From Streptomyces rapamycinicus NRRL 5491 (GTDB lineage Bacteria; Actinomycetota; Actinomycetes; Streptomycetales; Streptomycetaceae): 64,000 nt of DNA. The stretch is from positions 11,780,001 to 11,844,000 of the forward strand of contig NZ_CP085193.1 in the NCBI RefSeq assembly GCF_024298965.1. The letters run 5' to 3'. Within the stretch, counting starts at the first letter, position 1; each line of letters starts with the position of its first letter. Shown here in pieces: positions 110 to 10,697 of this stretch. Below the pieces are notes generated by a model. It had not been told where the DNA came from, made no database searches, and worked only from the letters and a program-made list of their open reading frames with translations. The translations under genes and the position numbers were made by a program.

Positions 110-910
110 TCAGGTCCCGGCCGACCGGGCGGTCTGATCGACCCGTGCGCGTACCCGGGCCAGGAAGGTCCGTACCTCGGCGGCGGGCAGCGGGAGCGCG
201 GAGGAGCGGGGGCGCTCGAAGCTGCGCACCGCGGCCTCGATGAGCGGCCGGAACTCCTCCTCGGCCAGGGCGGCTTCGCGCGCCGCCGCGCGCTTGGCCA
301 GCCAGCGGCCCGTACGGCAGAACACCACCGAGCGGCAGCCGTTGAGCACACGGTTGTCCGCGAGGTGACCTTCGCCGTCGCTGTGCTCACGGACGGAGGC
401 CCGGATCGCGGCGAGCAGATCGGGGCGGTCCGGTGCGGCGACCACCTCCCGGGCCGGGCGGCCGAACAGCGTGAGCCCGGTCTGGTGGGCGACGGAGCGG
501 TCGATGACGTACCAGAACGCCGGGGACCGCGCCGCGTCGAAGTCGGCCCGGTCGGGCAGCAGCGGGCCGGTGTTGAGGTCCAGGAGGTACCCGGCCGCAC
601 CGGAGGGACGGCGGACGAAGTCCGCTCCGTAGACCACCAGTTCCAGCCCCGCGGCCGGGCAGGGCAGCCGCGGGTGGGCGAGGGTCCCGGCCAGGTCGTG
701 CGGGGCCGATCCGGGCAGCGACGGCTCCACCACGACCGTCACATCGATGTCGCTGCGCCCATGCCGGTAGTCCCCGAGCGCGAGGGAACCGACCGCGAGG
801 ACACTCACCAGATGGGGCCCGCACACCGCGCGGGTGCGCCGGACGAGTTCTGCCAGATAGGGCCGCAGTTCGGTGGGGACGGACCGCGGATCCTCGCGCG
901 TGTGGGCCAC
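110..910 (-). CDS. Nucleotidyltransferase-fold protein, aminoglycoside adenylyltransferase-like
   Basis: 266 aa from a GTG start. The N-terminal half has the pol-beta nucleotidyltransferase signature: Gly41-Ser42 followed by SDID at 53-56, whose two Asp residues would bind Mg-NTP. The C-terminal half (about 150-260) is helical and resembles the DUF4111 region of ANT(3'')/ANT(9) enzymes, including a DNRVLNGCR stretch near 185-193. Such enzymes transfer AMP to an aminoglycoside hydroxyl, but many Streptomyces relatives have no proven resistance role, so the substrate is unknown. It lies 42 bp downstream of the stop of the Clp-N regulator on the same strand and may be co-transcribed with it. Confidence 0.75.
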   Translation of the reverse strand: MAHTREDPRSVPTELRPYLAELVRRTRAVCGPHLVSVLAVGSLALGDYRHGRSDIDVTVVVEPSLPGSAPHDLAGTLAHPRLPCPAAGLELVVYGADFVRRPSGAAGYLLDLNTGPLLPDRADFDAARSPAFWYVIDRSVAHQTGLTLFGRPAREVVAAPDRPDLLAAIRASVREHSDGEGHLADNRVLNGCRSVVFCRTGRWLAKRAAAREAALAEEEFRPLIEAAVRSFERPRSSALPLPAAEVRTFLARVRARVDQTARSAGT

Positions 911-952: not shown

Positions 953-1666
953 TCAGCCCGCCGTGTCCGGGAGCCGCGAAGAGGTGTCGGCGAAGGTCGC
1001 CGGATCCAGTCCGGCCTCGCCGAGCACCGTGGCGGCCACACCGCGGGCGATCTGAGCGAGCCCCAGGAGCAGGTGGTCGCAGTCGATGTGCGCCGAACCC
1101 GCCGTCCCGGCCCGCTCCTCCGCGATCGCGATGGCCTTGCGGGAGTAGGGGGTCCAGGCGATGCGTTCCGCCGCCTGCGACGCTCCCATGGTCAGCCGGC
1201 TACCGACGGCCTTGTGCACGTCTTCGGGTGGTACACCGGCGGCACGCAGGAGCCGTGTGGCGTTGTTGTCCTCTGCGGTCAGTCCCCAGAGCAGGTGTTC
1301 GGTGCCGATGTAGTTGTTGCGATGCTGTACCGCCGCCCGCTTGATGTGCGTCATGGCCTGGCGGAGGTCCTCGGACATGGTCTCGGGGTCGTAGCGCTTG
1401 TGTGGGGCGTGAAAGCGCTGCTGCACCGCTTGCCGGGTCACCCCGAGTGCCGCGCCGATGTCCGTCCAGGAGGAGCCGTGCATCCGGCAGTGCTCGACAT
1501 AGTCCTCCACCAAGTCATCGGCCAGGGCCTGCAGTTGGCCCGCCAGGCTCGCCGCCGTCGACAACAGTGCGAGCCAGTCGGGCTGCTCCTGTCCACCGGG
1601 GCGGTGTGCGGCATCGCAGGTCCGGTCCACTTCCGCGATGAGGTCGTCCAGATCAGGAAGAGGCAT
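953..1666 (-). CDS. ClpC2-type regulator: HTH plus two Clp N-terminal repeats
   Basis: 237 aa. Residues 1-60 are helical. Residues 66-86 (SSWTDIGAALGVTRQAVQQRF) form a helix-turn-helix. Two Clp N-type repeats follow, at about 100-160 (with YIGTEHLLWGL) and 167-230 (with HIDCDHLLLGL). There is no AAA+ module. This is the layout of mycobacterial ClpC2 (Rv2667-like), which carries a similar SWTDIG...QAxQxRF helix and a ClpC N-domain copy; those proteins bind ClpC1-targeting cyclic peptides and have been reported to control their own gene. The ATG at 1664-1666 lies 3 bases from a perfect 18-bp-arm palindrome, with no ribosome-binding site, so a leaderless mRNA is likely. Inference: a DNA-binding sensor of Clp-targeting compounds that represses itself and the divergent exporter, now broken. 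Confidence 0.8.
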   Translation of the reverse strand: MPLPDLDDLIAEVDRTCDAAHRPGGQEQPDWLALLSTAASLAGQLQALADDLVEDYVEHCRMHGSSWTDIGAALGVTRQAVQQRFHAPHKRYDPETMSEDLRQAMTHIKRAAVQHRNNYIGTEHLLWGLTAEDNNATRLLRAAGVPPEDVHKAVGSRLTMGASQAAERIAWTPYSRKAIAIAEERAGTAGSAHIDCDHLLLGLAQIARGVAATVLGEAGLDPATFADTSSRLPDTAG

Positions 1667-1669
1667 GAG

Positions 1670-1712
1670 GCAAGTACGCCTTGACAAAGTGAGATTGTCA
1701 AGGCGTACTTGC
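1670..1712. promoter_or_regulatory. 43-bp perfect inverted repeat: probable operator/promoter of the ClpC2-type gene
   Basis: Arms of 18 bp (1670-1687, core caagtacgccttgacaa, and 1695-1712) are exact reverse complements around the 7-base spacer agtgaga. Each arm contains TTGACA-like sequence. Read towards the minus-strand gene, TTGACA is followed about 17 bases later by CGTACT, which would place the transcription start near the ATG. The symmetric site therefore covers both divergent promoters and is a likely autoregulatory operator. Confidence 0.7.
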
Positions 1713-2671
1713 GTTTCTTGAGGCGGGGGCGGGCTGTGCCCGTGATCGGCCGGGAGCTGTCGGCCTCGCTCACCGGCATCCAGTGGATCACCGACGGGTA
1801 CACCCTGGTCTTCGCCGGTTTCCTGCATGAGCGGCGGAGCGCTGGGGGACAGGCTGGGAAACCGCCGGATCTTCTGCACCGGCGTGGTGGTGTTCACCGT
1901 GTCATCGGCCGCGTGCGCCTTCGCGCCGAGTGCCCCCTTCCTCGTCGCCGCCCGGGTGGTGGAGGGCCTCGGCGCGGCGTTGATCGTGCCCGGCTCGCTG
2001 GCCCTCCTCCAGCAGGCGTACCCGGCTCCGGCCGCCCGCTCGCGGGCCTTCGGGGTGTGGGGCTCCATCGCGGGGATCGCGGCGTCTGCGGGGCCGCTGC
2101 TGGGCGGGCTGCTGGTCTCCGCCGTGGGCTGGCGGTGGGTGTTCCTCATCAATCTGCCCGTCGGCGTCGCCTGCTCGTCACCGGTCTGGCGCTGTTCCCC
2201 GCGGTGGCGATGACCATGTTCGCGTCCATCCTCTCCGGGCGGCTGGCCCGCACGACCGGCGACCGTCCGCTGGTGTGCACCGGCATGCTGCTGGCGGCCC
2301 TGGGACTGGCGGGCTGGGTCGCGGCGGGAGCCGAGCCCGCCTACCCGCTGCTGGTGGTCCCGATGATGGCGGCGGGATTCGGCACCTCCTTCGCGCTCAC
2401 CGGCTCCGCCTCCACCGTCATGGGCGCCGCGCCCCCGGCGTACTCGGGGACCGCCTCCGCGCTGTTCAACACCACCCGCCAACTCGGCAGTGCCACCGGC
2501 GTGGCGCTCGGTGGCACCCTGCTCGTCACGGCCGCCGACTACGGCGAGGGGCTGCGCACCAGCATGGCCATCGGCGCCCTCGCCTATCTGACCGGCGCGG
2601 GTCTGGCATGGTTCTGCGTACCGCCCGAGCCCGGGAGCGAGGCACCTGACGCGGAGGCCCACGCGGGCTGA
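1713..2671 (+). pseudogene. Decayed DHA2-type 14-TM MFS drug exporter
   Basis: Three conserved segments lie in alternating frames. Segment 1 (about 1736-1829) encodes the TM1-TM2 region (VIGRELSASLTGIQWITDG...) but lacks the usual N-terminal LDATIVNVAL-type helix; its upstream end abuts the palindrome. Segment 2 (1827-2172) is shifted, apparently by loss of 2 bases, and encodes ALGDRLGNRR through VFLINLPVG, i.e. motif A, motif C and TM3-6. Segment 3 (about 2170-2671) returns to the first frame and encodes the last TMs, skipping an estimated 130-150 residues of the middle. No functional transporter can be made. It diverges from the ClpC2-type regulator, so it was probably that regulator's efflux target. 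Confidence 0.85.
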
Positions 2672-8147: not shown

Positions 8148-10697
8148 ATGAGCAGCGGTTTCATGGGTCCGGGGGACTTCGGTCCAGACCCGTTCGAGGA
8201 ATTCATGGCGCGATTCCTCGGCGGCGGACCGCGCCCCGGCCTCCGCCATATCGACATCGGCCGCCTGATGAGCGACCCCGCCCGGCAGCTCGTCGCCGAC
8301 GCGGCCACCTATGCCGCCGAGCACGGCAGCGCCGATCTGGACACCAAACATCTGCTGCGTGCCGCGCTGGCCGCCGAGCCGACCCGGGAGCTGCTGGCGG
8401 GGGCGGGCGCCGACACCGACGCGCTGGCCGCGGAGATCGACCGGATGAGCGGCGAGGGGCCGCGGCGCACCCAGCTGTCCGTCACCCCAGCGGTCAAGCG
8501 CGCCCTGCTGGACGCGCACGAACTGGCCCGTATGAACGGCGCCTCCTACATCGGCCCCGAGCATGTGCTCGGGGCGCTGGCCGCCAACCACGACTCCACG
8601 GCCGGCCGCATCCTCAACTCCCTGCCCTTCGACCCCGCGGCGGGCCGGGGCGGACCGCAGAGCGCACCGGGCCAGCCGCCGGTGAGCAGGGCGGCCGGGC
8701 AGCAGTCCGGCCGACGGCAGAACACGCCCACCCTCGACAAGTTCAGCCGCGATCTGACCGACCTCGCCCACGCGGGGCGGATCGACCCGGTCATCGGCCG
8801 CGAGCAGGAGATCGAGCAGACCGTCGAGGTGCTGTCCCGCAGGGGCAAGAACAACCCCGTACTGATCGGCGACGCCGGAGTCGGCAAGACCGCCATCGTC
8901 GAAGGGCTCGCCCAGCGCGTGGCCGAGGGAGACGTCCCCGACATCCTCCTGGGCCGCCGGGTGGTCGCCCTGGACATGTCCGCGGTCGTCGCCGGCACCC
9001 GCTACCGCGGCGACTTCGAGGAGCGGCTGAGCGGCATCATCGACGAGATCCGCACCCACTCCGAGGAGCTGATCGTCTTCATCGACGAGCTGCACACCGT
9101 GGTCGGCGCGGGCGCGAGCGGCGCCGAGGGCGGTTCCATGGACGCGGGCAACATGCTCAAGCCCGCCCTGGCCCGTGGCGAACTCCATGTCATCGGCGCC
9201 ACCACGCTGGAGGAGTACCGCCGCCACATCGAGAAGGACGCGGCGCTGGCCCGGCGCTTCCAGCCAGTCCTGGTCCCGGAGCCCTCCGCCGCCGACGCCG
9301 TGGAGATCCTGCGCGGTCTGCGCGACCGCTACGAGGCCCATCACCAGGTCCGCTTCACCGATGAGGCGCTGCTCGCCGCCGTGGAGCTGTCCGACCGCTA
9401 TCTCACCGACCGGTTCCTGCCCGACAAGGCCATCGACCTGGTGGACCAGGCCGGCGCCCGGGTGCGGCTGCGCTCGCGCACCAAGGGCACCGACACCCGA
9501 ATCCTGGAGCGCGAGGTCGAGCAGCTGACCCGGGACAAGGACCAGGCGGTGGCCGCGGAGGAGTACGAGCGGGCCACCGAACTGCGCGACCGCATAGCCG
9601 AGTTGAACCGCCGCATCGAGGCCGACGGCGGCACCGAACCCGACGACGGGCAGGGCCTCGAGGTCACCGCCGAGGACATCGCCGAGGTGGTCTCCCGCCA
9701 GACCGGGATCCCGGTCAGCAGCCTCACCCAGGAGGAGAAGCAGCGCCTGCTCGGCCTGGAGGAACACCTGTCCGAGCGGGTCATCGGGCAGGACGAGGCC
9801 GTCGGCGCCGTGGCCGAGGCGGTGCTGCGCTCCCGTGCCGGTCTTGCCGACCCCGGCCGTCCCATCGGCAGCTTCCTCTTCCTCGGTCCGACCGGCGTCG
9901 GCAAGACCGAACTCGCGCGGGCGCTGGCCGAGGCGTTGTTCGGCAGCGAGGACCTGATGGTCCGGCTGGACATGAGCGAGTACCAGGAGCGGCACACCGT
10001 CAGCCGGCTGGTCGGCGCGCCACCCGGATACGTCGGCCACGAGGAGGCCGGACAGCTCACCGAGGCGGTGCGCCGCCGCCCCTACGCGCTGCTCCTGTTC
10101 GACGAGATCGAGAAGGCGCATCCGGACGTGTTCAACACCCTGCTCCAGGTGCTCGACGACGGCCGGCTCACCGACGCCCACGGCCGTACGGTCGACTTCC
10201 GCAACACGGTCGTCGTGATGACCAGCAACCTCGGCTCCGAGGCCATCGGCGGGCGCGGCGCCCTCGGCTTCGGGACCGCGGACGCCGATACGGACGAGCA
10301 GGCCCGGCGCGAGCGCGTCCTGCGACCGCTGCGCGAGCACTTCCGCCCCGAGTTCCTCAACCGCGTCGACGAGATCGTGGTCTTCCGGCAGCTCACGGAC
10401 GAGCATCTGCGCCAGATCACCGATCTGCTGCTGGAGGAGACCCGCCGTCGGCTGCACGCCCAGAACGTCACCGTGGAGTTCGCCCCGGAGGCCGTCGACT
10501 GGATCGCGCGGCGCGGCCACGAACCCGCGTACGGTGCCCGGCCGCTGCGCCGCACCATCCAGCGGGAGGTGGACAACCGTCTGTCGCGACTGCTGCTGGA
10601 CGGCGAGATCTCGTCCGGCGACCGGGCCCGGGTGGAGGTCGCGGACGGACAGCTGGTGTTCCACACCGACACCGCCTCGAACGCCGGGCAACCGTGA
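8148..10697 (+). CDS. ClpC-type AAA+ unfoldase, Clp protease ATP-binding subunit
   Basis: 849 aa, ATG preceded by GGAACGGAAGG. Residues 1-45 are an unusual Gly/Pro/Phe-rich extension ([12 protein letters not shown]). The Clp N-domain covers about 46-165, followed by a linker. AAA-1 has GDAGVGKT near 242 and IVFIDELH near 308. A short UVR-like middle segment ([21 protein letters not shown] region, about 470-490) replaces the long ClpB coiled coil. AAA-2 has GPTGVGKT near 580, and a LGF loop near 704 suits ClpP docking. Together these make it ClpC-like rather than a ClpB disaggregase. Housekeeping ClpC usually lies elsewhere and lacks this extension, so this is probably a paralogue. No HspR or ClgR site was seen upstream. 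Confidence 0.85.

What the first reader, a model, noticed from the sequence alone, without database searches (positions are those of the whole stretch)
953..1712. ClpC2-type sensor gene with a 43-bp perfect palindrome at its start
The encoded protein has an HTH followed by two Clp N-repeats and no ATPase module, the layout of mycobacterial ClpC2. That protein is known to bind ClpC1-targeting cyclic peptides and to protect cells. Here the ATG lies 3 bp from a palindrome with 18-bp exact arms that embeds TTGACA elements, suggesting a leaderless, self-repressed promoter. Streptomyces make several Clp-targeting peptides (cyclomarin, ecumicin, rufomycin), so this may be a self-protection or competition-sensing switch not described outside mycobacteria.
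Basis: partly seen in the sequence, partly recalled or inferred. Interest (0 to 1): 0.75.

Follow-up and report, generated by a model that had tools for sequence, protein, structure and literature searches.

The report
Self-repressed ClpC2-like sensor gene
A Streptomyces gene makes a small protein that probably switches itself off by gripping a doubled DNA mark at its own start, and its sensing half resembles the docking part of a protein-shredding machine but with a changed pocket; the mark follows the DNA-gripping half through related genes, which hints at how this kind of switch is built.

Summary
In detail: a 237-aa HTH + two-Clp_N protein without ATPase (953-1666, minus) has 18-nt exact arms ending 3 nt from its ATG. 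The mechanism is largely published for mycobacterial ClpC2 (autorepressor, doubled operator, probably leaderless). New here: (1) the 'palindrome' is a pair of ClpC2-type operators; its TTGAC, GTCAA and TTG blocks sit at the same distances from the ATG as in ordinary Streptomyces ClpC2-type genes, and 48 of 50 upstream regions of this clade keep a dyad (5 of them weakly). (2) The protein is a separate long-stem clade; the cyclomarin contacts F80 and E89 are replaced in 53 of 53 proteins and F2 has no clear counterpart, while the genome also holds an ordinary ClpC2-type gene. Cyclomarin sensing is therefore not supported; the ligand is open. (3) Tandem operators of this kind precede genes with the same HTH but no Clp_N (9 of 10 loci of one class, the tenth unreadable; 4 of 4 genomes of an HTH-DUF3887 class; 0 such sites in 760,821 bp of background). 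This suggests that the N-terminal HTH reads the operator, not the C-terminal arginines proposed for mycobacterial ClpC2. No binding was measured. Verdict: new variant of a known kind.

The parts
953..1666 (-). CDS, 237 aa: N-terminal HTH/dimer region plus two Clp_N repeats, no ATPase
1481..1576 (-). codons 31-62, long helix with the predicted dimer salt-bridge residues D50 and R61 (ClpC2 D46/R57)
   Evidence: AlphaFold helix 31-62; alignment to 8ADA; D50 in 50 of 51, R61 in 51 of 51
1412..1468 (-). codons 67-85, helix-turn-helix; predicted recognition helix 78-85 (RQAVQQRF)
   Evidence: R78 Q79 A80 Q83 R84 invariant in 51 of 51
1199..1372 (-). codons about 99-156, first Clp_N repeat
   Evidence: borders approximate
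974..1156 (-). codons about 171-231, second Clp_N repeat; begins at W171, the counterpart of ClpC1 F80
   Evidence: borders approximate
1670..1685 (-). proximal operator half of the dyad, GTCAAG-GCGTA-CTTGC (gene orientation), 3 nt from ATG
   Evidence: binding not measured
1697..1712 (-). distal operator half of the dyad, GCAAG-TACGC-CTTGAC (gene orientation)
   Evidence: binding not measured
1696..1701 (-). putative -35 TTGACA, at -35 to -30 from the A of ATG
   Evidence: position; function inferred; no promoter-like hit in the scan
1673..1678 (-). putative weak -10 CGTACT, 17-nt spacer
   Evidence: own reading; inferred

Best explanation
The gene encodes a ClpC2-type autorepressor of a distinct clade. 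A dimer held by its N-terminal helices binds, through the N-terminal HTH, two operators about 27 bp apart (centre to centre) that cover the promoter of its own leaderless transcript. The C-terminal Clp_N pair, a copy of the docking domain of ClpC, binds a hydrophobic peptide-like ligand or ClpC client; binding loosens the repressor, the protein accumulates, and it soaks up the ligand before it reaches ClpC. Shown by comparison: domain layout, operator architecture and register, conservation, link of operator to HTH, changed pocket. Inferred: DNA binding, leaderless start, derepression, sponge action. Unknown: the ligand, which is probably not cyclomarin.
For: Published ClpC2 precedent: self-repression, doubled operator CGTCAAC-n5-GTTGACG, putative leaderless start, sponge (PMC10030653). 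Same register: a matrix from 20 ordinary ClpC2-type upstream regions scores this clade at +9.4 on average at zero offset; the best of 24 other offsets is -6.5; background mean -30.7 over 109,995 60-mers. TTGAC-n11-GTCAA-n7-TTG is present in 43 of 50, dyad kept in 48 of 50. No conserved neighbour gene: apart from the gene itself and frames overlapping it, clusters reach at most 10 of 56 loci; one perfect core site in the genome, as for a self-contained switch. HTH and dimer residues nearly invariant. Operator follows the HTH: class D (no Clp_N) 9 of 10 loci, the tenth having only 396 nt upstream; class F (HTH-DUF3887) 4 of 4 genomes; background 0 sites in 760,821 bp. dN below dS in 7 of 7 comparisons.
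Against: No binding, transcript or phenotype data exist for this clade. The -10 box is poor and the promoter scan finds nothing. In mycobacteria a mutant of two C-terminal arginines bound DNA less efficiently, which argues for some C-terminal contribution. The clade's outer half-sites are GCAAG rather than GTCAA, so its own sites are not matched by the pattern used for classes A, B, D and F. Two of 50 relatives lost the dyad and five are weak. One of 18 core sites precedes an unrelated XRE-type gene, and HTH-only class E has a site in 1 of 3 loci. At least 12 of 67 loci are partial matches, so the gene is often lost.
Confidence: 0.7

Rival explanations
1. It is a cyclomarin/rufomycin-type self-protection or competition sensor.
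For: Layout of ClpC2, which binds cyclomarin; W171 (50 of 51) and Y92 (51 of 51) could line an aromatic pocket; one indole-prenyltransferase family hit (Trp_DMAT, 36.7 bits, above its cut-off of 25) in the genome, with 0 of 14 control genomes hit.
Against: E89 lost and F80 replaced in 53 of 53, no clear F2; an ordinary ClpC2-type gene (L002) is kept in the same genome, and all 11 ordinary proteins aligned, L002 among them, have F at F2 and F80; the prenyltransferase hit is about 4.8 Mb from the window and was not studied further. In M. tuberculosis only the cyclomarin analogue, not ilamycin or an ecumicin analogue, raised ClpC2 (passages).
Confidence: 0.12
2. The dyad acts as RNA: a 5' hairpin or a terminator.
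For: The terminator scan lists it as an 18-pair stem with a T-rich tail on the + strand.
Against: The half-sites are conserved as sequence while pairs at the five spacer positions break in 8-15 of 43 relatives; paired cells are 678 of 774 against a shuffle mean of 657.2 (maximum 670), a small excess; the register to the ATG leaves little room for a leader; the core recurs before other genes with the same HTH.
Confidence: 0.05
3. Another regulator binds the operator and the HTH-Clp_N protein is only a sponge.
For: One of the 18 exact core sites precedes a small XRE-type regulator rather than this HTH family (L161, own reading of the protein).
Against: 17 of the 18 sites lie before genes or operons coding for the same HTH family; mycobacterial ClpC2 binds its operator directly in gel shifts.
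Confidence: 0.08
4. The C-terminal Clp_N arginines, not the HTH, read the DNA, as proposed for mycobacterial ClpC2.
For: R185A/R189A binds DNA less efficiently; the equivalent mutant in M. smegmatis shows 2.0-fold derepression.
Against: The R185 counterpart is R in 0 of 53 and the R189 counterpart in 6 of 53 of this clade (counterparts placed by my numbering offset of 92 from F172/F80 and E181/E89) although the operator is kept, while the R185 counterpart is R in 11 of 11 ordinary proteins; classes D and F have operator and HTH but no Clp_N. The 8ADA structure ends at residue 72, before the predicted recognition helix.
Confidence: 0.12

Closest known systems
Mycobacterial ClpC2 (Rv2667; Taylor 2023, PMC10030653)
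   Same: HTH/dimer region plus Clp_N pair without ATPase; D46-R57 salt-bridge counterpart kept; doubled n5 operator next to the ATG; leaderless layout
   Different: Cyclomarin contacts F80 and E89 replaced and F2 without clear counterpart; C-terminal arginines lost; half-sites CTTGACA/GCAAG instead of GTTGACG; accessory gene, full length in 16 of 295 Streptomyces genomes
Ordinary ClpC2-type genes of Streptomyces (classes A and B here, e.g. L002, L032)
   Same: Domain layout and operator blocks at the same distances from the ATG
   Different: 33-37% identity; GTCAA-n5-TTGAC operators; F2 and F80 kept in 11 of 11 and E89 in 9 of 11 aligned
RelI antitoxin and its HTH-DUF3887 and HTH-DUF2812 relatives (PMC13284704, passages seen)
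   Same: The same HTH domain family
   Different: No Clp_N; RelI is a toxin partner, with no inverted repeats found upstream by its authors
Streptomyces 'ClpC2' Clp-ATPase (PMC9765437, passages seen)
   Same: Name; it is a Clp family protein
   Different: A Clp-ATPase working with ClpP; not this protein

Membership tests
ClpC2 (Rv2667-type) | Two Clp_N repeats, no AAA module | tested here: met
ClpC2 (Rv2667-type) | N-terminal dimer region homologous to 8ADA, with the D46-R57 pair | tested here: met
   E 3.9e-5 to 8ADA; D50 in 50 of 51, R61 in 51 of 51; dimerisation itself not tested
ClpC2 (Rv2667-type) | Doubled n5 operator directly before the ATG | tested here: met
   outer half-site letters differ
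ClpC2 (Rv2667-type) | Cyclomarin contacts F2, F80, E89 | tested here: not met
   53 proteins; invariant Y92 nearby
ClpC2 (Rv2667-type) | C-terminal arginines R185/R189 | tested here: not met
   R in 0 and 6 of 53
ClpC2 (Rv2667-type) | Falls inside the ordinary ClpC2 clade | tested here: not met
   clade C, 14 rows, one branch with 100/100 support and stem length 2.09; class A on another branch (99/100). No mycobacterial ClpC2 was in the tree by name; long-branch warnings apply
ClpC2 (Rv2667-type) | Binds its operator and is released by ligand | not testable with these tools
   bench experiment needed
Streptomyces ClpC2 Clp-ATPase | AAA+ ATPase modules | tested here: not met
RelS-RelI toxin-antitoxin | RelS toxin partner gene next door | not tested
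   RelS was not searched for; no neighbour gene is shared by more than 10 of 56 loci

The most novel reading that the evidence does not exclude
ClpC2 is one branch of a modular regulator family in which one HTH, reading one kind of tandem operator over a leaderless or near-leaderless promoter, has been joined to at least three sensor parts (Clp_N, DUF3887, and an unassigned domain encoded behind a small membrane protein). The window's clade carries a re-tooled Clp_N pocket for a ligand other than cyclomarin, so Streptomyces holds several parallel sensors that mimic the ClpC docking domain, and release in all of them passes from sensor part to HTH.
Probability: 0.5. Interest if true: 0.72.

Novelty: new variant of a known kind. 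Interest (0 to 1): 0.55.

Why it matters
It makes an open point about ClpC2 directly testable: which part reads the DNA, and how a peptide in the Clp pocket releases it. It also gives a named set of Streptomyces relatives with a changed pocket, useful for finding natural ligands of ClpC docking domains, a current antibiotic target.

Tried and rejected
Divergent MFS gene as a second target: rejected; it looks like a remnant, with matches to EmrB positions 60-169 and 304-409 only in the two pieces scanned, and no neighbour is widely conserved. A wider regulon: not supported; one perfect core site in the genome; the one-mismatch site precedes an XRE-like gene by my own reading; hits at up to 2 mismatches are 7 against 6 for the reversed control. 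The 38-bp operator+ATG pattern with up to 1 mismatch hits only this gene in the genome; the genome's ordinary ClpC2-type gene is missed, by my reading because its spacer is 12 nt. Terminator or RNA reading: see rivals. A search for paper text on PDB 8B9O gave only an unrelated paper. HTH-only relatives (class E: L219, L222, L007) have a site in 1 of 3 loci, 343 nt before the HTH, so not every relative of the HTH has the operator. One search repeated and added nothing.

Rows dropped: one search took 55 of the 67 loci; the 12 partial matches L147-L158 were not examined. Searches used 49 of those 55 plus the window (L117, L119, L121, L139, L141, L145 left out for missing N-terminus, start or upstream DNA). 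The matrix includes L067 and L068, whose starts are uncertain. Class A/B counts 28 loci; L002 and L225 are one gene. L231 and L237 are one gene and counted once for class F. The A/B locus without a site is L217, which has a near miss. The XRE-type and small-membrane-protein readings rest on sequence looks; the membrane protein had no Pfam hit above cut-off.

Full report
What is there. On the minus strand, 953-1666 encodes 237 aa. Pfam gives Clp_N twice and no ATPase module, with weak HTH hits at about 58-87. The AlphaFold model (51-row alignment of the window protein and 50 relatives; mean pLDDT 81.5, pTM 0.69) has a long helix 31-62, helices 67-74 and 78-85 that form the HTH, then the Clp_N pair. 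Its best PDB match is a ClpC1 N-domain (6ucr, TM 0.80 by target length); the C-terminal domain of M. smegmatis ClpC2 (8b9o, 0.78) is at rank 32; 8AD9 and 8ADA are not among the 50 rows shown. The inverted repeat has 18-nt exact arms around a 7-nt asymmetric centre and ends 3 nt from the ATG.

What the repeat is. In gene orientation it reads GCAAG-TACGC-CTTGAC, 11 nt, GTCAAG-GCGTA-CTTGC, CTC, ATG. Each arm has the CAA(C/G)-n5-(C/G)TTG heart of the published ClpC2 operator CGTCAAC-n5-GTTGACG. In 11 ordinary ClpC2-type genes of Streptomyces the blocks TTGAC (-35 to -31), GTCAA (-19 to -15) and TTG (-7 to -5) are the consensus at the same places relative to the ATG; the genome's own ordinary gene, L002, has a 12-nt instead of 11-nt spacer between the inner blocks, by my reading. 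A matrix from 20 such upstream regions scores 50 upstream regions of this clade at +9.4 on average at zero offset, against -6.5 at the best of 24 other offsets (the offset test used those with 100 nt of upstream DNA); 44 of 50 exceed the 99.9th percentile of 109,995 background 60-mers, 11 exceed their maximum, and the window's score is reached by 0.011% of the background. So the 'palindrome' is best read as a pair of ClpC2-type operators that mirror each other.

Conservation. A scan of named genomes gave 67 loci, 65 in Streptomyces and one each in Actinocorallia and Actinomadura. Of 50 usable upstream regions including the window, 43 pair at 11 or more of 18 positions in the exact register (38 at 14 or more; random stretches 69 and 2 of 11,000), 5 pair at 14-18 with a small shift, and two sister loci, L128 and L134, lost it. 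GCAAG and CTTGAC are kept as sequence, while pairs at the five spacer positions break in 8-15 of 43, the pattern of a protein-read DNA site rather than an RNA stem. In a sample of 295 Streptomyces genomes, 16 have a full-length copy, the own genome included, and 4 more have only parts (G267, G194, G049, G242). Apart from the gene and frames overlapping it, no neighbour is shared by more than 10 of 56 loci. dN is below dS in 7 of 7 comparisons, and in each is lower in the first 95 codons (0.045-0.17) than in the rest (0.12-0.35). The Streptomyces origin of the window is inferred from these relatives.

What is already known. Taylor 2023 (PMC10030653; I read the outline, passages, Results parts 1 and 2 of 3, section 11 and the Discussion, not the supplement) showed that mycobacterial ClpC2 represses itself from a pseudopalindrome 1-2 nt before the ORF, repeated upstream in many of the organisms, that the promoter position suggests leaderless transcripts, and that cyclomarin lifts repression. 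The legend of their operator alignment names seven actinobacteria, none of them Streptomyces. A 2026 paper (passages only) found that an ecumicin analogue and ilamycin bind ClpC2 but that only the cyclomarin analogue raises it in M. tuberculosis. In Streptomyces papers 'ClpC2' names a Clp-ATPase (passages), so the name is ambiguous.

How this one differs. The clade is one branch with 100/100 support and a stem of 2.09 changes per column; the tree tool warns of long branches elsewhere in the tree. In 53 proteins, ClpC1 F80 is replaced (W in 52, R in 1), E89 is never E, and F2 falls opposite a gap in 52 and D in 1; in 11 ordinary Streptomyces proteins F2 and F80 are F in 11 and E89 is E in 9. 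An ungapped reading of my own puts P94 opposite F2, and an invariant Y92 lies two residues before it. PDB titles show that F2Y and F80Y mutants of ClpC1 were solved with cyclomarin bound, so aromatic swaps need not abolish binding. Cyclomarin binding is thus made unlikely, not excluded. The positions matching the C-terminal arginines proposed to bind DNA in ClpC2 are R in 0 of 53 and 6 of 53.

Who reads the operator. The core CTTGACA-n9-TGTCAAG occurs at 18 places in 17 of 295 Streptomyces genomes; the reversed control pattern occurs at 3 places in 2 genomes. Ten precede the window's clade. Six precede an operon of a small, probably membrane, protein and, as second gene, a protein with the same HTH but no recognised Clp_N (class D). 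One precedes an HTH-DUF3887 gene (class F). One precedes a small XRE-type regulator. In a wider class D set, 9 of 10 loci carry GTCAA(C/G)-n5-(C/G)TTGAC sites, two per locus in 8 by the strict pattern and in all 9 by the relaxed one; the tenth has only 396 nt upstream. Class F has two relaxed sites in each of 4 distinct genomes and no strict one in the loci tested for it (L163 and L231; L236-L238 scanned with the relaxed pattern). Classes A/B have relaxed sites in 27 of 28 loci and strict ones in 19 of 28. The background, flanks of this clade's loci, holds 0 of either in 760,821 bp. Against this, HTH-only class E has a site in 1 of 3 loci, and this clade's own sites, with GCAAG outer halves, do not fit that pattern and are tied in by core and register instead. 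The 38-bp operator-ATG pattern hits 59 places in 56 of 121 genomes, with 0 in the reversed control; 30 of the 59 were opened and all 30 begin a ClpC2-like ORF by its first residues, L176 being partly masked, and 27 of 30 hold the letters TEH of the Clp_N repeat; of the other 29, two (G038, G042) are class D and two (G002, G088) are this clade by their places, and 25 were not opened in that call.

Since the operator stays when the Clp_N part is absent, and the operator stays when the C-terminal arginines are lost, the simplest reading is that the N-terminal HTH reads the DNA. The 8ADA structure of ClpC2 ends at residue 72, whose alignment partner is V76 of the window protein, just before the predicted recognition helix. 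Taylor's result that a C-terminal-domain variant and the R57A dimer mutant lack high-affinity binding, read there as a need for dimers, fits loss of the HTH as well for the former. The published arginine mutant, with less efficient binding and 2.0-fold derepression of its M. smegmatis equivalent, still argues for some C-terminal role.

Print status. Searches for ClpC2 with cyclomarin, ClpC2 with Streptomyces, Clp N-terminal domain with self-resistance, ClpC2 with helix-turn-helix, Rv2667 with operator, DUF3887/DUF2812 with helix-turn-helix, and ClpC2 with leaderless or autorepress showed no paper, by titles and abstract starts and the passages named above, that links this operator to the HTH across fusions. 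The RelS-RelI paper (passages) describes the HTH family and its DUF fusions but, in the passages seen, no operator. The library lacks most subscription journals.

Limits. No binding, transcript or ligand data for this clade. The -10 element is weak and the promoter scan found none. The class D C-terminal domain has no Pfam match above its cut-off, so its identity with the DUF2812 fusions of the RelI paper is not shown. Class D sites sit 500-630 nt before the HTH codons because another gene lies in between, against about 215-240 nt in class F.

Noticed in passing
window 8148-10697 (+): 849-aa Clp ATPase with Clp_N, AAA and UVR motifs (ClpC-like layout; best NCBIfam score to ClpB, below its cut-off), about 6.5 kb from the finding; a related copy lies at G000:C1:1427338.
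   Followed up: partly
window 1827-2668 (+): EmrB-type MFS efflux gene remnant next to the operator: the two pieces match profile positions 60-169 and 304-409 only, so the middle seems missing.
   Followed up: partly
window 110-910 (-): AadA-like nucleotidyltransferase downstream of the finding; Pfam AadA_C above its cut-off, NCBIfam hits far below theirs.
   Followed up: no
L170, L173, L169, L168, L165, L166: Two-gene operon in Streptomyces: small, probably membrane, protein plus HTH protein with an unassigned C-terminal domain, under a ClpC2-type tandem operator.
   Followed up: partly
L163, L236, L237, L238: HTH-DUF3887 genes under tandem operators with GTAAAG or GTCAAG half-sites (DUF3887 tested by Pfam on L163 only).
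   Followed up: partly
L161; L038 (own genome 12362112): Small XRE-type regulators preceded by the same or a one-mismatch CTTGACA-n9-TGTCAAG core, perhaps convergent.
   Followed up: no
L147-L158: Twelve partial matches to the window's gene in other Streptomyces, suggesting frequent decay or loss; not examined one by one.
   Followed up: no
L123, L124: Streptomyces sp. NRRL S-646 carries two copies of the window's gene, one with a shifted dyad.
   Followed up: no
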